Virus record (IMG/VR): IMGVR_UViG_3300030060_002703
Location: 1-22,083 of that record
Source of the DNA: a virus
Direction: 5' to 3' (one strand)
Length of the DNA stretch: 22,083 bases
Shown: positions 9,559-21,727 of the stretch, piece after piece
Position numbering within the stretch: position 1 is the stretch's first letter
Layout of the letters: the number at the start of each line of letters is the position of its first letter
Program-made: the position numbers and the translations under genes
The notes under the pieces: model-generated
Told to the model about the DNA's origin: nothing
Databases searched by the model: none
Seen by the model: the letters and a program-made list of their open reading frames with translations, nothing else

Positions 9559-9858
9559 TCAAGATACCGACACAGTTACTGTTCCAATAGATGTGGTTGC
9601 AGATGATCCATCAACACCAGCTATGTTTATTAAACTTATCTTAACATCATTTCCTTGTCTATACAAGGTTCCAACCTCTAAGCCTACATCACTTGTGGGC
9701 ATAGCTGTAAAAACTGTTTTAGTATTTCTTCCTTCTCCAGGATTATCAGACTGTTGTATAAAAAAATCTAATGCTCTAACTAAATCAATTATATAGTTTT
9801 GATCAACATTTCCAATAGGAAGAGGAAGTCTAGGTGACGCAATATCTCTTGAGGACAT
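9559..9858 (-). CDS. Small conserved virion-locus protein, 99 aa
   Basis: This 99-residue protein has L-P-L-P followed by Y-I-I-D-L-V-R-A-L-D-F-F (residues 11-33). That pattern matches a family of short phage proteins found next to tail genes. The C-terminal half is Gly/Thr/Val-rich beta-like sequence (V-G-T-L-Y-R-Q-G-N-D-V-K-I). No signal peptide or catalytic residues are present. A very good ribosome site (G-G-A-G-G-A-G-A) ends two bases before the ATG and doubles as the last codons of the 621-residue tail protein. The stop abuts the next ATG. Function unknown; a minor structural or fibre-attachment protein is likely. Confidence 0.68.
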   Translation of the reverse strand: MSSRDIASPRLPLPIGNVDQNYIIDLVRALDFFIQQSDNPGEGRNTKTVFTAMPTSDVGLEVGTLYRQGNDVKISLINIAGVDGSSATTSIGTVTVSVS

Positions 9859-11723
9859 TATCTCCTCCCGTCTAGTCTAACATCTACTCTTGGTGTTCCT
9901 AGTTTCCATGCCACACCTTGATCTGTCGATTCGAGCTTCATATTAAAAGATCGTCCTCTTAGTCTTACATTAACTAAATCTGTGAACTGCTCTACTGGTG
10001 TGGTTGCAGTTCTTGTACTAGTGCCACCAGAAGCATTAGCATAAGTGCTACCAGGTCCTTTTCTTGCTTGTAGTGTAAAAGTGGCTGTTGGGTTACCAGT
10101 GGTTGATGTAGATCCATCAAATGTAATATCTGGAACAAGCTGTTTTATAAAACTAAATTGATATCCATCTCCAATATCAAGTTGACTAGATTCTACAGAA
10201 GCAGTCATAGCTGATCCATCGTCATCGTTGCCATTTTCATGTTCAAATAAATGAGATGAACCTGCTGCTAACGGAAATTGTCTTATACCTCTATCATGCC
10301 AAGCCGTTCTTGATAAAGTACCATAATACCATAGCTTTTCTAAATAGTTGTATATTACATATTTATCGTTTTCTTCTGAGGTGGCGGATGGATAGAACCA
10401 CCATATCTCACCCCACTTAGAATTAACACCTGCTACTACTTTATCTGCTTGAGAAAAATTAAAATCTAAAAATATCTTGTCTCTGACTGTGCATGGTATT
10501 TGTTGTGTTTGTCCAGCGTACAAATAAAAATTATCTTTACCCATCCAAAAAACTGCATCATCTACTGCGACAGCTGATTTAGGACTCATGATTGTAATAT
10601 TTTTAGAAAGTTCTTGTAAACCAAAAGTAAATGGAGGACCTATAAATCTCATACTAAATAAACTTCTGTCTGTGTATACAAGTATTTGTTGTTTTGTTTC
10701 TACAGCTTGAACAAAAGTAGACCCGCTACTTAATCTTAAGTCTCCAGCAGTGTTTGTGGTGGTTGGCGTAAAATCTGTTAAAGATTCTTGAGAGCCAAAA
10801 CGAATTAGAAGAGGATCTTGTATTGATGTTCCAATCGTGTTTGTTCCAAAAAAGATTATGTGACGATCTAAATCAGATACCAAAATTTGTTTTGCAATAG
10901 TAGGTGCGTCTGAAGAACCACTTAAACTTGTTATGTTTACTGCTCTTGTGCCAGTGCCATTTGTTTTATCCCAATAAAATATACCACCATCTCTTGGATT
11001 AATTAGTAAATCTTCACCAAAATTGTCATGCGACCACAAACGAATGGTTGCAGTTGTTCCACTAGCGGCAGCCTCACCCCAACCAAAGGTTGAAAGATCT
11101 GCGTTGACTCCACCATAACTACCTGCACCCCAACCGTTACCACCAACAGAAGTGTTTAGTCCTACATTAACTTGATATACTCCATCTACACCAGATCCAC
11201 CATTACCACTATCAGATGAATTAGCAGTTACACTTACTGTTATTTTATATGAATTACCATTAACAATAGATGTTATTTGATGTTCAGTATTAAGTACACT
11301 TGCTGTTATATTGCCACCTAAACTTACTGCACCCGATATAACTACAAAATCATTTGCAACTGCACCATGAGATGAATCTGTAACTGTGATTTCAGCAGAG
11401 CCATTTGATGCAGAAAATGTAATACTATTTGTAGAGGTTTTACGAGTAGGTGTTATATCATTGAAGCTACCACCCTCTTCTATGTAATACTTTAAATGTG
11501 TGCCTACTCCTAAAAAATTTGAACCATCTAATGCTACCCAGTTATGTAAAGCTCTCGCAGTTCCTAAATAAGTATTGTCAGATTGTTTAACCCAACCACC
11601 TATTTTTTCTGGAAACCCAGCATAAAACCTTACTTTTTCACAATCAAAAAAACCACCCTCATTTGAAAAAGAGGTTATTTCTCTATTGATACCAGGTCTA
11701 AATTTTAACGATGTTAAAGGCAT
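9858..11723 (-). CDS. Phage tail/stabilisation structural protein, 621 aa
   Basis: The N-terminus (M-P-L-T-x-L-x-F-x-P-G-I-N-x-E, then G-G-F-F-D-C-E-K-V-R-F and G-F-P-E-K-I-G-G-W) matches a widespread structural protein of short-tailed and marine phages. An immunoglobulin-like or carbohydrate-binding-like insert lies at about residues 98-190 (I-T-V-T-D-S-S-H-G-A, then G-N-I-T-A-S-V-L). A repetitive beta-strand region with several W/Y-rich blades follows, suggesting a propeller fold as in P22-type tail stabilisation proteins (fold inferred). It is upstream of the ejection genes and just downstream of the oxygenases. The ribosome site is weak, with a small spacer after the oxygenase stop. I am confident it is virion structural and less sure of the exact tail position. 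Confidence 0.78.
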   Translation of the reverse strand: MPLTSLKFRPGINREITSFSNEGGFFDCEKVRFYAGFPEKIGGWVKQSDNTYLGTARALHNWVALDGSNFLGVGTHLKYYIEEGGSFNDITPTRKTSTNSITFSASNGSAEITVTDSSHGAVANDFVVISGAVSLGGNITASVLNTEHQITSIVNGNSYKITVSVTANSSDSGNGGSGVDGVYQVNVGLNTSVGGNGWGAGSYGGVNADLSTFGWGEAAASGTTATIRLWSHDNFGEDLLINPRDGGIFYWDKTNGTGTRAVNITSLSGSSDAPTIAKQILVSDLDRHIIFFGTNTIGTSIQDPLLIRFGSQESLTDFTPTTTNTAGDLRLSSGSTFVQAVETKQQILVYTDRSLFSMRFIGPPFTFGLQELSKNITIMSPKSAVAVDDAVFWMGKDNFYLYAGQTQQIPCTVRDKIFLDFNFSQADKVVAGVNSKWGEIWWFYPSATSEENDKYVIYNYLEKLWYYGTLSRTAWHDRGIRQFPLAAGSSHLFEHENGNDDDGSAMTASVESSQLDIGDGYQFSFIKQLVPDITFDGSTSTTGNPTATFTLQARKGPGSTYANASGGTSTRTATTPVEQFTDLVNVRLRGRSFNMKLESTDQGVAWKLGTPRVDVRLDGRR

Positions 11724-11738
11724 AGCTCATAATAGCAT

Positions 11739-12347
11739 TCATGATGGTTTGTGTAAAGTTACACTAACATTGAAGGAAACAGAAATTCTAGGACTGTCTG
11801 AAGCATTAGGATGAGCCATATGTTGTAAAAAAGATGGAAAAAGCAAAAGATCTCCCTCTTTTGGTAACACTCTATATTCATCTCTGTTTTGTTGGTCACC
11901 TTCAATAGAAAGCATATTAACATGAGATCTAGGGTCAAAAAAAGATATATGTGATGGAGCTAAATCTTTTCTATGAGATTGATCATTACGTTGATTCGGC
12001 ATACTTACATAGTAAACCCCAGATAACCAACTATGTGGATGATTATGAGGAACATGATAATCGCCTTTCATGTTTACATTTGCCCATGCAAAAATAGTGT
12101 ATTGAAGATTATATTTAATTTTTGATTCATAGATATATTTGTTAACAGCTATGGCTAAATTATTTTTTAGCCAAACAACTGCCTCATGATTATTTTCTAA
12201 AAAATTTTCACTTTTATATTCTTCAGTCATGTTTTTAGTAACTCTATTTTTTTCTAAAATAATTTTACTAAGATCAATGTTTGCAACTTCGTGGGATTCT
12301 AAATTATCTTGGAAAATTGTAGTAGACCACAACTTTTCAAACTTCAT
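11739..12347 (-). CDS. 2OG/Fe(II) oxygenase, TIGR02466-like, HxH variant
   Basis: This 202-residue protein has the hallmarks of the TIGR02466/PF13759 family of putative 2OG-Fe(II) oxygenases. H98 is followed by P-H101-N-H103, then L-S-G-V-Y-Y-V (108-114). A distal block reads G-D-L-L-L-F-P-S-F-L-Q-H176, and R187 in P-R-I-S-V-S-F-N would bind 2-oxoglutarate. Iron ligands are probably H101 and H103 (HxH in place of the common HxD) with H176; this assignment is inferred from the family pattern. Such enzymes hydroxylate an unknown substrate using O2 and 2OG. It is the last of four adjacent oxygenase genes, overlaps the previous one by 11 bases, and takes its ribosome site (A-G-G-A-A-A) from that gene's C-terminal codons. 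Confidence 0.85.
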   Translation of the reverse strand: MKFEKLWSTTIFQDNLESHEVANIDLSKIILEKNRVTKNMTEEYKSENFLENNHEAVVWLKNNLAIAVNKYIYESKIKYNLQYTIFAWANVNMKGDYHVPHNHPHSWLSGVYYVSMPNQRNDQSHRKDLAPSHISFFDPRSHVNMLSIEGDQQNRDEYRVLPKEGDLLLFPSFLQHMAHPNASDSPRISVSFNVSVTLHKPS

Positions 12348-12945
12348 ACTGTTTTCCTAAAAGTTCGGGGTTTTTACTAAAAGTCGGATGTGGGTTTATT
12401 ATATGTTCCATATACCAATGAGATATACCCCTACCAAAGTAATTTACATTTATGGTAGATCTATATAAAGCATCACTTGGAGAAGAACTGGAGTGAGATG
12501 TTGAAGGATCAAATAACAAAAGCCTATTTTCCTTTGATTCTATGCCCACTCCATCTGCCATAGTGGTTGGTGCATTACAATTGGTTAGAAAAAACAAGGC
12601 ACCATTATGTTTAAAGTCAGCGTCAATATGAGGAGCATGATGTGTAATTTGTTCTGATTTACTAGGAAAATATAAATTAGCTTTTATTCTAAATAAACTA
12701 AGAACACTAATTTTACTTAATAAATCTAAAAAAGGTTGTAGTCTGACTGCCTTATTCCATTGCTCTTCTGGTGGTCTGTTAGCACCATAAACAACCGAGC
12801 CAAAATACATATCATTATTGTTACCATCATTATCATTTATTCTACCACTAAAATTCCAAGGAAATAAACCATTTGGACCTAAATAAGATTTTAGAGCACC
12901 AAACTCGTGTGGTGGTAAAAAATCATCATATACTATGTAATACAT
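12337..12945 (-). CDS. 2OG/Fe(II) oxygenase, phage-type (second of cluster)
   Basis: This 202-residue protein has the double-stranded beta-helix pattern H106-I-D108, then A-L-F-F-L, then R-L-L-L-F-D-P-S-T-S-H151, then R162 in Y-R-S-T-I-N-V-N-Y. H106, D108 and H151 form the expected iron triad, and R162, 11 residues after H151, fits 2OG binding. The N-terminal 90 residues are helical with a poly-Asn loop (N-D-N-D-G-N-N-N-D near 37-45). It is similar in design to oxygenases found in many marine phages, whose substrate is unknown. It has its own ribosome site (A-G-G-A-G-A, four bases before ATG) and overlaps the next oxygenase gene. All active-site residues are intact, so it is probably active. 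Confidence 0.85.
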   Translation of the reverse strand: MYYIVYDDFLPPHEFGALKSYLGPNGLFPWNFSGRINDNDGNNNDMYFGSVVYGANRPPEEQWNKAVRLQPFLDLLSKISVLSLFRIKANLYFPSKSEQITHHAPHIDADFKHNGALFFLTNCNAPTTMADGVGIESKENRLLLFDPSTSHSSSSPSDALYRSTINVNYFGRGISHWYMEHIINPHPTFSKNPELLGKQYEV

Positions 12946-12953
12946 ATTTTCTC

Positions 12954-13538
12954 CTATTTAAAATTAGGACCCTTGACCCAACACACTAAACTATATCGTG
13001 TTCCTTTTGTAACTGGTTTTACACCATGATTTATGTAAGATGGAAAAAATATTACTGTGCCTTGACCTTTAGAATCTTCTACATTAAATTTTTCTTTATC
13101 ATCGGGAAACTCAAATTCCCCTCCTTCATAATATTCTGGTGGCGTAAGTTGTATTGATAATGAAAGCTTTCTAACTAACGCATCAGGTGGAACTGGATCA
13201 TACACTCCATCCATATGTGGTCTATAAAAACCTTGATTTTTTTCATCGTATTTAGTTATTTGAAAAGCTTCAGGTTCCATTAAATCAAAACCATAAAACT
13301 GATCATTAATATTTTTAATTATTTGTAATACTGGAATAAATACATCCAAATGCCGTATAGAACCATTTAACCAACTAGTTTCACTTCTACGTTGTGTAGC
13401 GTCTCTATGTCCTGCTGACCCACCCTCTATAGGACCTCCTATTTCGGCAGGTCTAAAATCATTTTGTGCTAATTTAATTATAGTGTTACATAAAGTTGGA
13501 CTCAATGCGTCTCTCGCTACAACAATATTTCTTTTCAT
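12954..13538 (-). CDS. 2OG/Fe(II) oxygenase, prolyl-4-hydroxylase/PKHD type
   Basis: This 194-residue protein looks like the P4Hc/PKHD hydroxylase group. Y-R-P-H108-M-D110 is the first pair of iron ligands. L-S-L-S-I-Q-L follows, then E-G-G-E-F-E-F at about 138-144, then F-F-P-S-Y-I-N-H171 and G-T-R181-Y-S-L-V-C-W. The triad H108/D110/H171 and the 2OG-binding R181 are all present, so it should be catalytically competent. Family members hydroxylate prolyl residues or other small substrates; the target here is unknown. It starts within a recurrent A-G-G-G-T-A-G-C-A ribosome-site module, in which the stop codon of the upstream oxygenase (TAG) is embedded. Neighbouring fibre proteins rich in Gly/Pro are plausible substrates (inference only). 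Confidence 0.88.
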   Translation of the reverse strand: MKRNIVVARDALSPTLCNTIIKLAQNDFRPAEIGGPIEGGSAGHRDATQRRSETSWLNGSIRHLDVFIPVLQIIKNINDQFYGFDLMEPEAFQITKYDEKNQGFYRPHMDGVYDPVPPDALVRKLSLSIQLTPPEYYEGGEFEFPDDKEKFNVEDSKGQGTVIFFPSYINHGVKPVTKGTRYSLVCWVKGPNFK

Positions 13539-13548
13539 TTGCTACCCT
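13539..13548 (-). promoter_or_regulatory. Ribosome-site module AGGGTAGCA before 13538 ATG
   Basis: The minus strand reads A-G-G-G-T-A-G-C-A-A-ATG. The TAG stop of the upstream oxygenase lies inside the module, so it serves both termination and re-initiation. The core is shared with the site before 14072. Confidence 0.5.
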
Positions 13549-14072
13549 TGTACTGACTCTTGATATAAATATTCTCTTTCATCATATGCTTGATCTTTGT
13601 TTTTACCATTAGCATCAACATAATGTAGAAAGACATGATTTGAGTAATCATGTGGGCATGGATCTCTATAATGTTCTTGTTCACAACCTTTATAAACCAC
13701 TCCTTGACCTATTTTTAAATCAACGGGAACATTGTCCATATATATTGACCAAGGTGTGTTCGTGTCAGAAGAACCCAAGTAAACTGTTGTGCTATACTCG
13801 CAAGCTGGTCTATCACGATGTGCTCTTAACACAGAACCTTTGACGTAAGACCTAAAGAAAGAATAAGTAGGTATTAATTTTTTTCCCGTTAAAGACTCAA
13901 TTGTTGGTTGTAAGTGCAACAATAAACTTTCAAAAACAATATCACCATATTGATACTTGCATGGCATCCATGCCATCTCTTTTTTTATGTTAAGATTATT
14001 AGTTAAACTTTGTGTGTGTGTAATTAAAAAGTATAATAAATGTTCTGGAAGAACAAAAACAGAATTTTTCAT
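13542..14072 (-). CDS. 2OG/Fe(II) oxygenase-like protein, lacks usual Arg
   Basis: This 176-residue protein has R-A-H85-R-D87 followed by Y-S-T-T-V-Y-L-G (a typical beta-strand pair), then G-Q-G-V-V-Y-K-G-C-E-Q-E-H134, and then V-F-L-H-Y-V-D. H85, D87 and H134 give a full iron triad. The conserved Arg or Lys expected 10-11 residues after the distal His is absent: residues 144-146 are S-N-H. Co-substrate binding may therefore differ, or R136 or another residue may serve. Residues 1-60 are helical. It heads the four-gene oxygenase cluster, after a 37-base gap. Its ribosome site is the A-G-G-G-T-A-G-C-A module and lies in a weak hairpin. The fold assignment is good; activity is uncertain. Confidence 0.75.
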   Translation of the reverse strand: MKNSVFVLPEHLLYFLITHTQSLTNNLNIKKEMAWMPCKYQYGDIVFESLLLHLQPTIESLTGKKLIPTYSFFRSYVKGSVLRAHRDRPACEYSTTVYLGSSDTNTPWSIYMDNVPVDLKIGQGVVYKGCEQEHYRDPCPHDYSNHVFLHYVDANGKNKDQAYDEREYLYQESVQG

Positions 14073-14109: not shown

Positions 14110-14487
14110 TTAACTCCAAGGAAAACTTGCTACAAAGTCATCACCACTTCCTGAGCCTTTTGCAGTAGAGCCATCTATCTCGTCTTCATGCTCCAACCCG
14201 TTTTCCATAAATTTTTTTACGTCAGCTATTGATTCTGAACCTATTTTATTTTCTATCCAACCTTCCACTTGTGATTCTGTAAGAGACCCATAAGCAACAA
14301 AATTTGTCCAATCTGCTGGATTTTTTAAAGCAAGATCATAACCATGATCCAATGAGTTACCAGTCTCACTACTTGTTGCAGTTAAAAGACCAAACACTCT
14401 TTTTACGACATCATTATATGTTTTACCACTATCTGTGATATTTTTTGTATATAATGTTTTTATTGTCCATTTATATGATACTGACAT
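14110..14487 (-). CDS. DUF7936-like small phage protein, 125 aa
   Basis: This 125-residue protein begins M-S-V-S-Y-K-W-T-I-K-T-L-Y and has N-P-A-D-W-T-N-F-V-A-Y-G-S-L-T-E-S-Q-V-E-G-W (about 56-77). This resembles a family of small phage proteins (DUF7936-like) often encoded close to tail-fibre genes in marine phages. The C-terminal part is acidic and helical, then Gly/Ser-rich, ending P-W-S. It has no transmembrane segment or catalytic motif. It lies between the glycine-rich adhesin and the oxygenase cluster and has a good ribosome site (A-G-G-A-G-A). A role as fibre chaperone, fibre-associated protein or small capsid decoration is possible; nothing in the sequence decides it. Confidence 0.66.
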   Translation of the reverse strand: MSVSYKWTIKTLYTKNITDSGKTYNDVVKRVFGLLTATSSETGNSLDHGYDLALKNPADWTNFVAYGSLTESQVEGWIENKIGSESIADVKKFMENGLEHEDEIDGSTAKGSGSGDDFVASFPWS

Positions 14488-14496
14488 TTTTTTCTC

Positions 14497-15741
14497 CTAT
14501 GATGTCGGGGCTGATCCAGTTATAGTTCCGTTATTTGTTGATGATATAGTAACACCAGAACCTCTTTCCCAAGCCGCTCCAGCACTACCGACCGACCCAG
14601 CTGAGCCACCACTAGATCCACTAGTTGAGGAACTAGTTCCAGTTGCTCCAGCATTACCAGAACCTCCTGCTGAACCAAAGCCACCACCTGTGCCACCAGT
14701 TCCGCCAGTTCCGCCATTTCCACCAGGTGTACTAGATCCTCCAGCCGAACCACTTGCTCCAGAGTCACCTCCAGGTTGATTATTAAATCCTCTACCTAAA
14801 CCTCCAGCACCACCAGCTCCTCCAGCCTCTCCAGCCGTTTGTTGTTGTTGTTGTATTGGTCCAGGATATGTACGATAAATTGAATAATTATTCCCGCTCC
14901 CTGGACCTCTATAATATGTGTATTGTCCACTTGAATAAGATGTAATTCCGTATGGTAAAGTATTAGGAGCACCTGTACTTGCATTATAAGGAAAACTAGA
15001 AGCGTTCCAAGCTATAGCCGTTCCATTTGGAGATCTAGGACCCCAGTAGTAATTAGGATTACTTGTTTGGAAAATAGGACCTTGTTGTAATGTGCCAGTT
15101 GTTTGTTGTTGTTGTTGATTTGCACCACCGAGACCACCGCCTCCACCACCAGCTCCTCCTCCTCCACCACCAAGAATAGAACCATTATTTATTATAGTAC
15201 AGTCAACAGCAAACTTCATAGCATCACCACCAGCAGATCCACTGCCACCAGCCCCTCCTGCACCAGCAGATCCAGCAGATCCAGCAGAACCCCCAGCTCC
15301 ACCAGCACCCATAATTGTTCCGTTATTTGTTACTGTTATTGTTCCTGCACCACCAGAATCTATCTCTAACCCATATTCTGCTGTATTATTGGAACCTAAA
15401 GTAATAGGCGATGGTATAACTATATTTTTAGGGTAGTTAACATCATAATCATCGCCAAATAAAGTAGAAGCATTTTGGTCTGTGCCACTCGAACCACTCA
15501 AAAAACTAGTAGAATATGTAAAAGTAAAACCTTTCGCTTGATCATAAAAGTCACTGGTACTCAAGGTTCCAGAAGTGGCAACAGATGCGGCGAGGTTTGT
15601 TGCTTGATTATCACCTGCTTTTTTTAATATATTAGAACCACCTCTGTAAAGATCGCCTAAACCAATTGCACTTGACCCACCAACAAATTCGGTTCGTAAG
15701 GATGAAAAAGATAATGATTGTCCAGAACTTGGGATTGCCAT
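14497..15741 (-). CDS. Polyglycine-rich tail-fibre adhesin (gp38-like, PGII type)
   Basis: This 414-residue protein has an N-terminal module (residues 1-40, S-F-S-S-L-R-T-E-F-x-G-G, then L-G-D-L-Y-R-G-G) that I link to marine phage fibre-attachment domains. A beta region follows to about 143. Beyond that lie long glycine runs at about 146-171, 191-206, 303-316 and 324-386, with Ala/Ser/Thr between glycines. This resembles the polyglycine-II sandwich of receptor-binding adhesins such as Salmonella phage S16 gp38. An aromatic cassette (about 214-296, Y/W/P/N-rich) interrupts the glycine blocks and is bounded by two identical Q-Q-Q-Q-Q-T tracts (209-214 and 297-302). The last 20 residues return to beta sequence with N-N-G-T-I. 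It is probably the host-recognition tip; the structural analogy is inference. Confidence 0.8.
   Translation of the reverse strand: MAIPSSGQSLSFSSLRTEFVGGSSAIGLGDLYRGGSNILKKAGDNQATNLAASVATSGTLSTSDFYDQAKGFTFTYSTSFLSGSSGTDQNASTLFGDDYDVNYPKNIVIPSPITLGSNNTAEYGLEIDSGGAGTITVTNNGTIMGAGGAGGSAGSAGSAGAGGAGGSGSAGGDAMKFAVDCTIINNGSILGGGGGGAGGGGGGLGGANQQQQQTTGTLQQGPIFQTSNPNYYWGPRSPNGTAIAWNASSFPYNASTGAPNTLPYGITSYSSGQYTYYRGPGSGNNYSIYRTYPGPIQQQQQTAGEAGGAGGAGGLGRGFNNQPGGDSGASGSAGGSSTPGGNGGTGGTGGTGGGFGSAGGSGNAGATGTSSSTSGSSGGSAGSVGSAGAAWERGSGVTISSTNNGTITGSAPTS
14839..14853 (-). repeat. (CAA)5 tract, C-terminal side of adhesin cassette
   Basis: Five CAA codons followed by ACG encode Q-Q-Q-Q-Q-T at residues 297-302 of the glycine-rich adhesin. 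An identical tract lies at 15103-15117. The two flank the aromatic cassette and could recombine or slip. Confidence 0.85.
15103..15117 (-). repeat. (CAA)5 tract, N-terminal side of adhesin cassette
   Basis: Five CAA codons followed by ACA encode Q-Q-Q-Q-Q-T at residues 209-214 of the adhesin. It pairs with the identical tract at 14839-14853. The segment between them, 249 bases, has lower glycine and higher Tyr/Trp/Pro/Asn content than its surroundings. Confidence 0.85.
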
Positions 15742-16740
15742 TTATTCACCTTTTAATGTATCAATTTCTTGTTTTAATTCTTTTATAGCTTCTATTAAGA
15801 CTGCCGTTAGTTTACCATAATCAACCGACTTTGTTTCCATTGCATCTTCTGCCGTTAAAACAACTTGTGGTAAAACTACTTCCATGTCTTGTGCTAAAAC
15901 ACCTATTTGTTCTTTAGCGTCTTCTACATCATTCCTTTTATAGTATACACCTTGCATTTGAGTAACTTTATCCAAAGCATTTGCTATAGGTTCAATATCA
16001 GTTTTTAGTCTTTTGTCAGAAAAAGCTGTAACATCGTTGTTAAATGTAGCGGCTCCAGCGGCAGACATATCAATAGTCAATGCAGTTATCTCACTTGTAG
16101 AGTCTTGTCCTTTTATAATAAAATCTTTGTCATCAACATCTGTTGCTATTACAAAGTCACTTGAAGAGTTTATAAATTTTGCGATTGTAGTGCCACCATC
16201 TTTAAATATAAGGTCAGCACCATCTGCATCAAGAACAATATCTCCAGCAGAATCAAATGTCATATCGCCAGAGTTAGTTTTAACTGTGCTAACATTTACA
16301 GAACCACCAGATAAATCTAAATCAACAAAAGCATCAACAACTGCGGCTCCAGATCCAGCTCCATCCAGATATACACACTTAGCATCTCCAGGACCGATAG
16401 TAATGTTTGCACCTGAACCTTGTGATATAATTATGTTTTGTGAACCACTCGTTGCATTTTCAATAATATGTACTCTTTTTAAAGTATTAGGACCTATTGT
16501 AATAGTACAAGATGAATCTAATGTACCCGTGTATTTTAAAAACAATGCACGACCCGCATCAGAAGAACCATCTGCTATTGTCGTTGTATGTGTGTCTGCA
16601 TTTGTTGTTATGGCTTCTGTGCCAAAACCTAATGCTTCACCAATAAGTTCAAGATTTGTGTTGGTTGAAGTACCCCATGTTCCTGATTCATCACCAGTGG
16701 CTATTTCTTTCAACCTAAGATTATTAACATATGTTGCCAT
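15742..16740 (-). CDS. Tail fibre with C-terminal S74 intramolecular chaperone
   Basis: This 332-residue protein has an N-terminal attachment-like part (residues 1-40: L-K-E-I-A-T-G-D-E-S-G-T-W-G), then a repetitive beta-helix-like shaft (about 41-235) rich in Gly/Thr/Asp. The C-terminal domain (about 241-332) matches the peptidase S74/endosialidase chaperone family: S241-D242-K-R-L-K246-x-D248-I, then Y-Y-K-R, G-V-L-A-Q-D-M, P-Q-V-V and V-D-Y-G-K-L-T-A-V-L-I-E-A-I-K-E-L-K. In this family the domain drives trimer assembly and is released by self-cleavage just before the Ser, here predicted between F240 and S241. It overlaps its upstream gene by TAATG. The S74 assignment is firm; the receptor is unknown. 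Confidence 0.87.
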   Translation of the reverse strand: MATYVNNLRLKEIATGDESGTWGTSTNTNLELIGEALGFGTEAITTNADTHTTTIADGSSDAGRALFLKYTGTLDSSCTITIGPNTLKRVHIIENATSGSQNIIISQGSGANITIGPGDAKCVYLDGAGSGAAVVDAFVDLDLSGGSVNVSTVKTNSGDMTFDSAGDIVLDADGADLIFKDGGTTIAKFINSSSDFVIATDVDDKDFIIKGQDSTSEITALTIDMSAAGAATFNNDVTAFSDKRLKTDIEPIANALDKVTQMQGVYYKRNDVEDAKEQIGVLAQDMEVVLPQVVLTAEDAMETKSVDYGKLTAVLIEAIKELKQEIDTLKGE

Positions 16741-17948
16741 TATGCGACCCTTTCAATCCAATTAGCAAGTTGGTCTGGTTTTATTATACTGTACACTTGT
16801 TCTTCTCCAGTAGCACCAGTACCACTAACTCCTGTTAAAGATAACACAGAAGTGCCAGTTAAGGCAAGTGTCCCTGCCGAAATAGCTAAACCATTTAATG
16901 TGACTGCCACTAAAGAAGTGCCAGTAACAGTTTCACTGCCTAATGCAGTTGTTCCTACATTCCCAGTTGCAGGAGCTCCAGTTGTTGTCACTATTAACAC
17001 AGAGAATGGAGTGTTTGCTGTCCAACCCATCGCGGAATGGTTAGTACAATAATAATATAAGGTCGGTGCTCCATCTGCTACTGTGATTTCTGTGTATGCC
17101 CCAGCTTGTCCTGGTGTTCCGTTTGTTGTCACACCAGTTGTATACTCTGAACCACCACCATGAGTACCATTTGCAGTCGTGCTAAGTCTTAATGGGTGTC
17201 CAGAATTACTAGAATCACTTTGATCAAATCTGTAAGTATTACCTTCATAAAGCTCTAGTGTAACATCCGCAGTAGCAGTTGATCCATTTATTGCAAATTT
17301 GTTTGAAGAACCAACATTATAATAAGGATGATTTGAAGGATTACCACTCACAACAGTAATAGTAAAAGTTATTGTAGAAGAAGATGTCCCTGCAATTAAA
17401 GCTTCAGCAGATACACTTGGTAATGTAAATATACCATTACCCACATGAGTAACTGAGCCAAGGGAACCAGTCATCGCTGATTGTGTAACGGCTACCTTGT
17501 TTTGTGGTACAGTTGCCTCATCACCTAGACCACTAACACCTTGAACACCAGTAACGCTAAAGACACCTGCTCCAGTAACAGTTGGGTTGTTAGATTGACC
17601 AGTTGCCTCAACTCCAGTTTGAGGTAAAACTTGTCCTACATCTGCAAATACACCACCACCCCAAACACCAGAGTCCCAAGCAGAACTACCCCAACCAGAT
17701 AAAAATCCGATTGTTCCAGCTACACCAGTAACACCAAAACTTATTGGAATAATTATGTTTACGGCAGGATTAAAACCTAAAGCAGTTGTAGCAGAAACAC
17801 CAACTGCTTCTGCAACATTAGCTATCTCAACGGCTTCATTACCAAGCGAGGTAGTTCCAGCATTGCCAGTAACACTAAAACTAGTGTCTAGCTGCCCACC
17901 CCACTTGTTATTACCCCAAGTGCCTTGTCCCCAGCCGATGTTAGCCAT
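16740..17948 (-). CDS. Repetitive virion protein with amicyanin-like cupredoxin domain
   Basis: This 402-residue protein begins W-G-Q-G-T-W-G-N-N-K-W-G-G and contains imperfect V-T-G-x-x-G-T-x-x-L-G modules near residues 26-36, 73-82, 132-142 and 328-344. Between about 195 and 320 lies a separate beta domain: K-F-A-I-N-G, then L-E-L-Y-E-G-N-T-Y-R-F-D-Q, then S-G-H251-P-L, and near its end Y-Y-Y-C301-T-N-H304-S-A-M307-G. Those four residues match the His-Cys-His-Met ligand set of type 1 copper cupredoxins, with the C-x2-H-x2-M spacing of amicyanin. Marine phages carry similar domains in fibre-like proteins. The C-terminus (Y-S-I-I-K-P-D-Q, ending N-W-I-E-R-V-A) is also conserved-looking, and its codons carry the next gene's ribosome site. 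Copper binding is inferred. Confidence 0.78.
   Translation of the reverse strand: MANIGWGQGTWGNNKWGGQLDTSFSVTGNAGTTSLGNEAVEIANVAEAVGVSATTALGFNPAVNIIIPISFGVTGVAGTIGFLSGWGSSAWDSGVWGGGVFADVGQVLPQTGVEATGQSNNPTVTGAGVFSVTGVQGVSGLGDEATVPQNKVAVTQSAMTGSLGSVTHVGNGIFTLPSVSAEALIAGTSSSTITFTITVVSGNPSNHPYYNVGSSNKFAINGSTATADVTLELYEGNTYRFDQSDSSNSGHPLRLSTTANGTHGGGSEYTTGVTTNGTPGQAGAYTEITVADGAPTLYYYCTNHSAMGWTANTPFSVLIVTTTGAPATGNVGTTALGSETVTGTSLVAVTLNGLAISAGTLALTGTSVLSLTGVSGTGATGEEQVYSIIKPDQLANWIERVA
16741..16751 (-). promoter_or_regulatory. Ribosome-site module AGGGTCGCA before 16740 ATG
   Basis: The minus strand reads A-G-G-G-T-C-G-C-A-T-A-ATG. It differs from the site at 8801-8811 by one base and, as there, encodes the C-terminal R-V-A of the upstream (cupredoxin) protein before a TAATG overlap. 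Confidence 0.55.
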
Positions 17949-18740: not shown

Positions 18741-19358
18741 CTATACTATAAATAACGGGTTTTTAGGAGTAAAAACTATCCACCCTGTCATAATCCATTT
18801 TTCATTTGATATTGGGGGATTTCCCCTATGCGTATGTGTCCAATCAGAGGGAAACAAACACAAACTCCCTTGTTTTGCTGGAACTCTTGCAGATTGATAC
18901 AAGAACTCTGTTTCTCCACCTTCTTCAACATTGTTTAAAAAAACTGACCATGTAAGAAATCTATCTCTAATGAGTCCATCTTCAAAGTGCCATTTATGAA
19001 AGCCACCACTTCTAGAAGTTTTTTGAATTTTAAATCCATCAAAAGAAACATTACATTGATCAAGAAAAAAATCTTTTATAATGGGAAATTTTTGTCCATA
19101 TGCTTTTACCCCCTCTCTTAAAACATACCCTAATTTATTAAAATACAGAGGATAATTATTAAATGAGCCAAAGACTATTTTTCCGTCCCACTGTTTGTCT
19201 TGCCTTTCGGGAGCGTTTACTTCCATGACAAGAATAGGTTCTTGTGATTCTGAGTTATAAACGAATCTTTCTTCCACAATAGGTATAATATTAATAATGT
19301 CTTCACATTCTTCTTTACTGTAAGCATCAGGTACTACCATGATCGTATCAGGTATCAT
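18741..19358 (-). CDS. 2OG/Fe(II) oxygenase, HxE type (fifth in window)
   Basis: This 205-residue protein has G-F-H-K-W-H124-F-E126, then S-V-F-L-N-N, then E-E-G-G-E-T-E-F (145-152), then L-C-L-F-P-S-D-W-T-H-T-H177-R-G, and K187 in E-K-W-I-M-T-G-W. This matches PF13640-like oxygenases where the second iron ligand is Glu and the co-substrate binder is Lys. The triad is H124, E126 and H177 (H175 is an alternative distal ligand). The N-terminal 100 residues are helical, with an E-E-C-E-D-I-I start. It overlaps the MAF/DUF115-like gene by four bases. Its ribosome site (G-A-G-G-A-G-A-A-A) is encoded within the last codons of that gene, which suggests tight co-expression and a shared task. The substrate is unknown. 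Confidence 0.85.
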   Translation of the reverse strand: MIPDTIMVVPDAYSKEECEDIINIIPIVEERFVYNSESQEPILVMEVNAPERQDKQWDGKIVFGSFNNYPLYFNKLGYVLREGVKAYGQKFPIIKDFFLDQCNVSFDGFKIQKTSRSGGFHKWHFEDGLIRDRFLTWSVFLNNVEEGGETEFLYQSARVPAKQGSLCLFPSDWTHTHRGNPPISNEKWIMTGWIVFTPKNPLFIV

Positions 19359-20107: not shown

Positions 20108-20743
20108 TTATTTACTAGGTAGTCCTTTTCTGTAAGAATCAATATTTTCTTGTCCCTCGGCATAACCTTTTAACCTTTGAATAGCCTCGACAAACCTAGA
20201 AGAATACAATTGAATCAAGTCGTTTTCACCTTTCATAAAAGTGTAGGCTTCTACAAGACAAGCATATAAAAGTGCATCTGGTGCATTTGTACTAATCCAT
20301 GTGGTTCCAGAATCATCTGTAGTCAATGATGCTGGTCTATAATAATAATGTAATTCAACAGAATAATTTGAATCAGGCGTTGGAGCCACTATGTAATTAT
20401 CAACATCAAACGAAGCATAATATATAGGAGAACCAGTTGTTACTGGATTAGCTGTATATTCTTGAATAAAGTTTACATCTTTTTGTAAAAGAAAAACATT
20501 TGAACTATCTTTTACAAAAGATAAAGAATACGTTGCTAGATAATCAGACGGTTTTTGTAGAAACTTATTACCACTTGTCATAGTTCCAGTAGCATTTTTT
20601 CTAAAATAATCTAAATCAACAAGTTTAAAGATTCTTTCTTCTGCATTTTTTATAAAAAAATCTAACTCATTTACAAAAGTTGTTTCATCATTTTCTGTCC
20701 AATCTTGTATTGATTGTTTTAATGTTGTTAATGTAAAACTCAT
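20108..20743 (-). CDS. Head-tail adaptor-like protein, 211 aa
   Basis: This 211-residue protein begins with a helical D-W-T-x-N-D-E-T-x-F motif, then F-I-K-N-A-E-E-R-I (residues 30-38), then L-D-Y-F-R-K, and has the P-S-D-Y-L-A-T pattern and a Y-Y-Y-R-P-A strand (133-138). A helix with P-D-A-L-L-Y-A-C-L-V-E-A-Y-x-F-M-K-G-E follows (about 154-172). This arrangement matches adaptor proteins of short-tailed phages (SU10-adaptor type), which sit between portal and tail. It overlaps the 105-residue gene upstream by ATGA. It is similar in plan to the 222-residue protein upstream, but not obviously a duplicate. Adaptor function is inferred from family features. Confidence 0.72.
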   Translation of the reverse strand: MSFTLTTLKQSIQDWTENDETTFVNELDFFIKNAEERIFKLVDLDYFRKNATGTMTSGNKFLQKPSDYLATYSLSFVKDSSNVFLLQKDVNFIQEYTANPVTTGSPIYYASFDVDNYIVAPTPDSNYSVELHYYYRPASLTTDDSGTTWISTNAPDALLYACLVEAYTFMKGENDLIQLYSSRFVEAIQRLKGYAEGQENIDSYRKGLPSK

Positions 20744-21058: not shown

Positions 21059-21727
21059 TTAATACCTCAAGTAAGAAATATTAGGTGTCAATTTTAATGG
21101 TGTACTATTTGCATCTTCTGACATGGCTCTTTGAAACTCTTCTTCATATATACTTTTCAAAATTTGTATTCTGTCTGGTGCTCTTTTTACAGCTATATAG
21201 TATGCAAGTCCAGCCGCCATGCATGGTAAAAACCTAAAAGGTGCATCAGTTGTATTAACTAAACTATCTGCATCTTCGATTCTTCTTACATAATAATACA
21301 CTAAAGTATACGAGGTATCTGGAGTAGACCACAATGTAATTGTAGGAGTTACTTGTCTATCAAAAAAATATTGACTTGGTTGTCCACTATTAGCCTTGTT
21401 TGGTATTCTTAAATATTCACCACGACTCATTTGTGTAAGAGTAAAATCTACATTATTACTATTTCTTAAAACAACTTCTAATAAGTCTACAACAGTAGCG
21501 TCTAAAAGAGTATAAGAAGCAGTTCCAGAAGTTATAGATAAAGTTTCTTGTTTAACTGTCCAAAGATTTAACCCTCTATTTGCCCAATCTGCAAACATAA
21601 GATTCAAAGAACGTCTTGCAGTTCTGGCATCGTAACCAGTTCTCATCTCTAAACCACACCTTTCGTATGCCTCTTCGATAAGTTCTGCTACATCTAAATT
21701 AAAATCTCTTGAACTTGAAGTTGCCAT
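21059..21727 (-). CDS. Head-tail connector/adaptor-like protein, 222 aa
   Basis: This 222-residue protein starts with a helical region with E-E-A-Y-E-R-C-G (residues 17-24), R-R-S-L-N-L-M-F-A-D-W-A-N-R-G-L-N-L-W (43-61) and a strand domain (T-L-S-I-T-S-G-T-A-S-Y). A second beta block (P-T-I-T-L-W-S-T-P, then Y-Y-Y-V-R-R-I) and C-terminal helices with P-F-R-F-L-P-C-M-A-A-G-L-A-Y-Y-I-A follow. Such proteins are found next to portal genes and resemble tail adaptor components (P22 gp4 or T7 gp11-like plan). The adjacent connector genes support this. The start follows the TAA of the Lys-rich gene immediately. Structural role likely; precise position unknown. Confidence 0.74.
   Translation of the reverse strand: MATSSSRDFNLDVAELIEEAYERCGLEMRTGYDARTARRSLNLMFADWANRGLNLWTVKQETLSITSGTASYTLLDATVVDLLEVVLRNSNNVDFTLTQMSRGEYLRIPNKANSGQPSQYFFDRQVTPTITLWSTPDTSYTLVYYYVRRIEDADSLVNTTDAPFRFLPCMAAGLAYYIAVKRAPDRIQILKSIYEEEFQRAMSEDANSTPLKLTPNISYLRY

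What the first reader, a model, noticed from the sequence alone, without database searches (positions are those of the whole stretch)
11739..14072. Four consecutive, divergent 2OG/Fe(II) oxygenase genes inside a virion operon
Genes at 11739, 12337, 12954 and 13542 each show an H-x-(D/H)...H triad, yet differ so much in motif context (TIGR02466-like, generic phage type, PKHD type, Arg-less type) that simple tandem duplication is unlikely. Single 2OG oxygenases are common in marine phages; four adjacent ones between fibre and tail genes suggest a dedicated modification cassette. Candidate targets are fibre residues, host surface glycans or DNA. They also give the particle locus an unusual iron demand.
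Basis: partly seen in the sequence, partly recalled or inferred. Interest (0 to 1): 0.72.

Follow-up and report, generated by a model that had tools for sequence, protein, structure and literature searches.

The report
Hydroxylase gene battery beside phage fibre
This marine phage carries four different iron-dependent hydroxylase-type genes in a row directly after the genes for its host-recognising fibre tip; related phages carry 0 to 8 such genes in the same slot and swap them together with the tip, which suggests, without proving it, that the enzymes chemically finish the tip.

Summary
Confirmed and extended. All four ORFs exist exactly as stated and are 2OG/Fe(II)-oxygenase-fold proteins. 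A is TIGR02466/PF13759 and C is PF13640 (PKHD-like). B and D match no Pfam-A family, and PHROG names them 'DNA endonuclease V' and 'ferrochelatase', but both fold confidently (pLDDT 94-95) as prolyl-hydroxylase-like double-stranded beta-helices with conserved iron triads. A fifth 2OG gene (18741-19358) was missed.

Runs of 2OG genes are already known in HTVC023P-type pelagiphages and cyanophages, so the kind is not new. New here: in 32 non-redundant relatives the slot between fibre tip and stabilisation protein holds 111 2OG genes against 7 others. The set tracks fibre-tip type independently of the phage backbone (partial Mantel r=0.33, p=0.0002). The Gly-rich tip always comes with the D-C-B core (13/13); tip, D, C and B sequences co-vary while C and B do not follow the backbone. 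In two complete pelagiphage genomes every detected 2OG gene lies at this locus; one has the same A/B/C/D quartet reordered.

Best reading: a modular set of protein hydroxylases that modifies the exchangeable fibre tip. Fold, location and linkage are shown; substrate and activity are not. Host-surface modification remains the main rival.

The parts
11739..12347 (-). A: 2OG/Fe(II) oxygenase-fold protein, TIGR02466 / PF13759 / phrog_81 type, H101-x-H103..H176, R187
   Evidence: TIGR02466 82.5 bits over cut-off; PF13759 94 bits; conservation
12337..12945 (-). B: 2OG/Fe(II) oxygenase, phrog_274 (misnamed 'DNA endonuclease V'), H106-x-D108..H151..R162
   Evidence: phrog_274 122 bits; AF2 pLDDT 94.0; best structural matches are 2OG oxygenases and prolyl hydroxylases, best Z 14.3; triad and Arg invariant in 29 sequences
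12954..13538 (-). C: 2OG/Fe(II) oxygenase, PF13640 / phrog_61, PKHD-like, H108-x-D..H171
   Evidence: PF13640 55 bits; phrog_61 109 bits; NF003974 below its cut-off; H108/H171 in 151/151
13542..14072 (-). D: 2OG/Fe(II) oxygenase-fold protein, phrog_2954 (misnamed 'ferrochelatase'), H85-x-D87..H134
   Evidence: phrog_2954 136 bits; AF2 pLDDT 94.6; Pseudomonas prolyl-4-hydroxylase and PHD2 among top matches; triad invariant in 53 sequences
14110..14487 (-). DUF7936 small protein, constant companion of the Gly-rich tip and D
   Evidence: PF25590 35.8 bits; co-occurrence; identity matrix correlates 0.81 with that of D
14497..15741 (-). GLY: Gly-rich putative fibre-tip adhesin with conserved scaffold and hypervariable central loops
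   Evidence: phrog_10745 and weak tail-fibre match; alignment of 17 relatives
15742..16740 (-). S74: tail fibre with Peptidase_S74 chaperone domain
   Evidence: PF13884 60.5 bits; phrog_5668 and many tail-fibre PHROGs
16740..17948 (-). FIB: tail fibre protein
   Evidence: phrog_30742 and phrog_693
9858..11723 (-). STAB: tail stabilisation-type virion protein, downstream border of the slot
   Evidence: phrog_3287 202 bits; homologues annotated stabilization protein
18741..19358 (-). E: fifth 2OG/Fe(II) oxygenase, phrog_61, at a second sporadic insertion site
   Evidence: phrog_61 140 bits; alignment with other 2OG genes at this site

Best explanation
The four genes are a modular battery of non-orthologous 2OG/Fe(II) hydroxylases, placed among the virion genes, that oxidise residues of the exchangeable fibre tip encoded just upstream: the Gly-rich adhesin at 14497-15741 with its hypervariable Tyr/Pro/Asn/Trp-rich loops, and perhaps its DUF7936 partner. 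Each tip type carries its own enzyme set because enzyme and tip loop must fit each other; tip and enzymes are therefore exchanged between phages as a block. Shown: fold, conserved iron sites, location, slot specificity, linkage to tip type independent of backbone. Inferred: late co-expression, catalytic activity, the tip as substrate, hydroxylation as product, an effect on adsorption.
For: Fold and iron site of B and D; A and C by curated families. Nearest solved structures are largely hydroxylases of proteins and peptides: EF-Tu P4H, PHD2, viral collagen P4H, AspH. The slot holds 111 2OG against 7 other genes in 32 loci. Set similarity follows tip type with backbone held constant, r=0.33, p=0.0002. 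Gly-rich tip with the D-C-B core in that order in 13/13 loci, against 2/19 other loci holding all three. GLY co-varies with B (r=0.54, p=0.0003), D and C given the backbone, whereas B and C do not follow the backbone given GLY; the GLY-B coupling exceeds that of GLY with its immediate neighbour S74. All 2OG genes detected in two complete pelagiphage genomes lie at the fibre locus, one with the same four families reordered. Fe(II) oxygenases are listed among host-recognition genes of metaviromic islands (PMC3909814).
Against: No substrate, activity or virion modification was tested. Adjacent genes recombine together, so linkage alone does not prove interaction. On the tree only 4 supported independent tip changes exist: the core goes the same way in about 3, the other way in 0, sign test p=0.25. 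The D, C and B families also occur with another tip type (L026, L035). One Gly-rich-tip locus has no 2OG gene (L044), nor do several relatives with other fibres, so tips can work without. Cyanophages also carry 2OG genes beside uvsX/uvsY. D lacks the canonical 2OG-binding Arg.
Confidence: 0.48

Rival explanations
1. The enzymes modify host surface molecules (LPS, outer-membrane proteins) during infection, for example to block re-adsorption of progeny or superinfection by phages with the same tip; linkage to tip type arises because the receptor is shared.
For: Would equally predict coupling of enzyme set to tip type. HTVC023P has a glycosyltransferase gene a little downstream of the same locus.
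Against: Nearest folds are largely protein/peptide hydroxylases; a position among virion genes is late for superinfection exclusion (inference). Signal peptides or membrane segments were not looked for.
Confidence: 0.2
2. Moron hot spot: the junction of fibre and stabilisation protein is a place where auxiliary genes accumulate, and the 2OG genes act on metabolism (2OG/nitrogen signalling) or small molecules, unrelated to the fibre.
For: Published work treats them as auxiliary metabolic genes (PMC9599517, PMC3037559, PMC11561400); composition is highly variable.
Against: A general hot spot would hold other gene kinds; here 111 of 118 slot genes are 2OG. Metabolic roles do not predict coupling to tip type.
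Confidence: 0.2
3. Nucleic-acid chemistry: the enzymes repair or hypermodify phage DNA, as the PHROG name 'DNA endonuclease V' and the uvsX/uvsY neighbours in cyanophages suggest.
For: In S-SM1 two C-type genes sit beside uvsY/uvsW and uvsX/gp41; literature proposes DNA repair (PMC9146016, PMC3037559).
Against: In the two pelagiphage genomes read in full all detected 2OG genes lie at the fibre locus, away from the replication genes; B folds as a 2OG oxygenase, so its endonuclease name carries no weight; tip coupling is unexplained.
Confidence: 0.1

Closest known systems
2OG-Fe(II) oxygenase / 'ferrochelatase' gene groups of HTVC023P-type pelagiphages (PMC9599517)
   Same: Eight non-orthologous 2OG families near each other in the genome, with 'ferrochelatase' beside them; phage 023Pt_psg01 has a contiguous B-C-A-D run at the same locus
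   Different: That paper takes the ferrochelatases as a separate iron/heme partner; here they are shown to be 2OG-fold proteins themselves, and linkage of the set to fibre-tip type was measured
Tandem 2OG runs after tail-fibre genes in cyanomyoviruses (S-SM1, P-RSM4; S-SCSM1 with 24 copies, PMC9602691)
   Same: Up to nine 2OG genes of classes A-E in one stretch downstream of tail-fibre genes
   Different: Cyanophages also hold 2OG genes at other loci, including beside uvsX/uvsY; the Gly-rich tip was not found in phage isolates and DUF7936 only once, weakly
Protein hydroxylases: Pseudomonas P4H acting on EF-Tu, HIF PHD2, viral collagen P4H (PBCV-1)
   Same: Same double-stranded beta-helix with two His and (in B, D) one Asp iron site; among the top structural matches
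   Different: Sequence identity only about 10-20%; substrates unknown here; D lacks the usual 2OG-binding Arg; A has His in place of the Asp
gp38-type fibre-tip adhesins of T-even-like phages
   Same: Gly-rich conserved segments with hypervariable loops between them, at the end of a fibre gene group
   Different: No Pfam match and no real PDB relative by sequence; T-even phages have no such enzyme set beside gp38 (general knowledge)

Membership tests
2OG/Fe(II)-dependent oxygenase superfamily (genes A-D) | Double-stranded beta-helix fold | tested here: met
   B and D: AF2 pLDDT 94.0/94.6, Z of 13-15 to 2OG oxygenases and prolyl hydroxylases; A and C by PF13759/PF13640 over cut-off
2OG/Fe(II)-dependent oxygenase superfamily (genes A-D) | HxD/E...H iron triad | tested here: met
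   B, D invariant; C has H108-x-D..H171, both His 151/151. Exception: A has HxH..H instead of HxD..H, 74-75 of 75
2OG/Fe(II)-dependent oxygenase superfamily (genes A-D) | Basic residue for the 2OG carboxylate about 10-14 residues after the distal His | tested here: inconclusive
   B R162 and A R187 conserved; D has no Arg there, although R74, R88, R136 are conserved
2OG/Fe(II)-dependent oxygenase superfamily (genes A-D) | 2OG turnover coupled to substrate oxidation | not testable with these tools
   needs biochemistry
Ferrochelatase (PHROG name for gene D) | Profile match to a ferrochelatase family | tested here: not met
   No Pfam ferrochelatase match at E up to 1 in any of 53 members; no ferrochelatase among solved-structure sequence matches; the model folds as a 2OG oxygenase
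DNA endonuclease V (PHROG name for gene B) | Profile match to a DNA endonuclease V family | tested here: not met
   No such Pfam match at E up to 1 in 44 members, while 16 match PF13640; the model folds as a 2OG oxygenase with conserved triad
gp38-type adhesin (GLY) | Match to a known adhesin profile or solved structure by sequence | tested here: not met
   No Pfam family; only low-complexity PDB matches
gp38-type adhesin (GLY) | Polyglycine-helix sandwich with distal receptor-binding loops | not tested
   GLY was not folded; Gly-rich segments and hypervariable loops seen in the alignment only
HTVC023P-type pelagiphage | Shared virion genes and gene order with HTVC023P | tested here: inconclusive
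   Gene order agrees in part, but STAB identity is 35% and the nearest records include Roseobacter and lake phages; the record is a 22 kb fragment

The most novel reading that the evidence does not exclude
Marine phages run a combinatorial post-translational oxidation system for receptor-binding tips: sets of up to eight hydroxylases are matched to, and exchanged with, each hypervariable tip, so that host range is set by tip sequence and tip chemistry together.
Probability: 0.35. Interest if true: 0.85.

Novelty: new variant of a known kind. Interest (0 to 1): 0.55.

Why it matters
2OG oxygenases are among the most abundant and least understood gene families of marine phages, usually filed as metabolic helpers together with 'ferrochelatases' and 'DNA endonuclease V'. 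Showing that these last two are the same kind of protein, and that whole sets travel with the fibre tip, moves the question from metabolism to host recognition and makes it directly testable by mass spectrometry on a cultured phage (HTVC023P). If true it would be an uncommon case of phage tails chemically modified by a dedicated enzyme set, and would matter for predicting host range from sequence.

Tried and rejected
Recent tandem duplication of the four: rejected, no mutual similarity by BLASTP, though paralogues of the same family do occur side by side in other loci. Heme/iron partner idea (ferrochelatase beside oxygenases): rejected for D by fold and sequence. A general moron hot spot: disfavoured by the 111 to 7 gene count. 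GLY homologues among phage isolates: none found; DUF7936: one weak match. Independent-pairs test of tip and core on the tree: too few supported changes to decide. Promoter/terminator scan of the region: no more sites than in shuffles, so transcription units were not defined. Paper search for phage fibre hydroxylation by 2OG oxygenases: no such report in the held library.

Full report
WHAT IS THERE. The window is a whole 22,083-base virus record. Reading the minus strand, the virion genes run: two SU10-type adaptor proteins with a small gene between them, p19355, a 2OG gene (E), p18416, p17959, fibre FIB, fibre S74, Gly-rich GLY, DUF7936, then D, C, B, A, then the stabilisation protein STAB, tail and ejection genes and a long 1385-aa virion protein. 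A fifth gene of the same superfamily, E, lies 4.7 kb upstream at 18741-19358.

FOLD AND IRON SITES. A is TIGR02466 over its cut-off and PF13759; C is PF13640 and PKHD-like. B and D have no Pfam hit; PHROG calls them 'DNA endonuclease V' and 'ferrochelatase'. AlphaFold2 on alignments of relatives from viral contigs gave pLDDT 94.0 (B) and 94.6 (D). Foldseek and VIA-align 2 put both among 2OG oxygenases and prolyl hydroxylases. For D the best row is an uncharacterised Oceanicola protein (2rg4, Z 16.5, 148 residues, 2.2 A), followed at Z 14-15 by SnoN, PHD2 and others; for B the best is a Burkholderia 2OG-Fe(II) oxygenase (6n1f, Z 14.3, 155 residues, 2.6 A), then PHD2. B keeps H106, D108, H151 and R162 invariant in 29 sequences; D keeps H85, D87 and H134 invariant in 53 sequences, but has no Arg at the usual place for 2OG. 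A has His where the Asp of the triad is expected. Thus the names ferrochelatase and endonuclease V are not supported for these families.

NEIGHBOURHOOD SURVEY. Anchored on STAB, 80 loci were fetched from viral contigs. In the 40 with at least 6 kb upstream, the number of 2OG genes before STAB is 0 to 8. In 32 non-redundant loci with a recognisable fibre tip, the slot between tip and STAB holds 111 2OG genes and 7 others, four of which are a PP-loop ATPase-like gene. Anchored on D, 80 further loci were fetched: 76 have another 2OG gene within 4 kb and 65 an immediate 2OG neighbour; 52 carry a recognisable STAB within 4 kb downstream, down to 30% identity with the window's. In the complete genomes HTVC023P and 023Pt_psg01 all detected 2OG genes lie at this locus, and 023Pt_psg01 has the same four classes as a contiguous run B-C-A-D; cyanophage S-SM1 has nine downstream of its tail fibres and five elsewhere, two of them beside uvsY/uvsW and uvsX/gp41.

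LINKAGE TO THE FIBRE TIP. Seven tip types were distinguished. The Gly-rich type with DUF7936 always has D, then C, then B, with further 2OG genes added or not (13/13 non-redundant loci); all three occur together in 2 of 19 other loci. Similarity of 2OG sets follows tip type after removing backbone similarity (partial Mantel r=0.33, p=0.0002). Within the Gly-rich type, sequence identities of GLY correlate with those of B (0.54, p=0.0003), D (0.42, p=0.002), DUF7936 (0.39, p=0.005) and C (0.35, p=0.02) given STAB; C and B do not follow STAB given GLY, and D does so weakly. The label of this tip type needs at least four changes on supported branches of the STAB tree. The stricter independent-pairs test has only four pairs and cannot reach significance, though none contradicts. 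GLY has conserved Gly-rich segments around a highly variable loop region rich in Tyr, Pro, Asn and Trp, the layout expected of a receptor-binding tip.

MECHANISM. The simplest account of slot specificity plus coupling to tip type is that the enzymes act on the tip, or on something the tip determines. The nearest folds are largely protein and peptide hydroxylases. I therefore favour hydroxylation of tip residues by a matched enzyme set, at 0.48; host-surface modification would give the same coupling and is the main rival. Activity, substrate and product are inferred. Physical adjacency inflates linkage; against this, GLY couples more strongly to B, four genes away, than to its immediate neighbour S74.

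WHAT IS KNOWN. Many 2OG genes in HTVC023P-type pelagiphages, beside 'ferrochelatases', are published (PMC9599517); so are up to 24 in one cyanophage (PMC9602691), their seasonal enrichment (PMC11561400) and the occurrence of Fe(II) oxygenases in metaviromic islands under 'host recognition' (PMC3909814). Structural likeness of phage 2OG proteins to the human prolyl hydroxylase EGLN3 is published (PMC12774648). I found no report in the held library that ties phage 2OG oxygenases to fibre modification. Proposed roles there are DNA repair and 2OG/nitrogen metabolism (PMC3037559). The feature is therefore a new variant of a known kind; the new elements are the corrected identity of B and D and the measured coupling to the fibre tip.

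LIMITS. The record is a fragment and its host is unknown. Only B and D were folded. Tip types were defined by clustering at 35% identity and 60% coverage, and some 2OG members (clusters 15, 18, 41) were assigned from weak profile hits or motifs alone. The fibre-tip role of GLY and of the other tip types is inferred from position and sequence layout.

Noticed in passing
18741-19358: Fifth 2OG oxygenase (E) at a second insertion site; four other loci carry other 2OG genes at or near this upstream site, 19-38% identical to E.
   Followed up: partly
11739-12347: Family A has three conserved His (H101, H103, H176) and no acidic residue conserved at 90% for the iron triad, 75 sequences; may be a non-standard iron site.
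   Followed up: partly
14497-15741: GLY protein: conserved Gly-rich scaffold with a hypervariable loop region flanked by Gln-rich motifs (QQQQQT), gp38-like layout.
   Followed up: partly
282-923: Strong match to phrog_3704 'ferredoxin' (360 bits) but no Pfam hit; a similar-sized S-SM1 gene is annotated both purM and ferredoxin, so the name is doubtful.
   Followed up: no
L005:7013-8080: D protein with an extra N-terminal part of about 190 aa of unknown kind; D proteins of 355-430 aa occur in several other loci.
   Followed up: no
L019:8720-9382: PP-loop ATPase-like gene (SGGPDST motif) inside the 2OG slot in 4 of 32 loci.
   Followed up: no
20108-20743 and 21059-21727: Two SU10_adaptor proteins in one virion locus.
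   Followed up: no
L058-L063 and L065: A group with about 62% identical STAB whose fibre (S74, 416 aa) is followed by STAB with no 2OG gene; shows the slot can be empty.
   Followed up: partly
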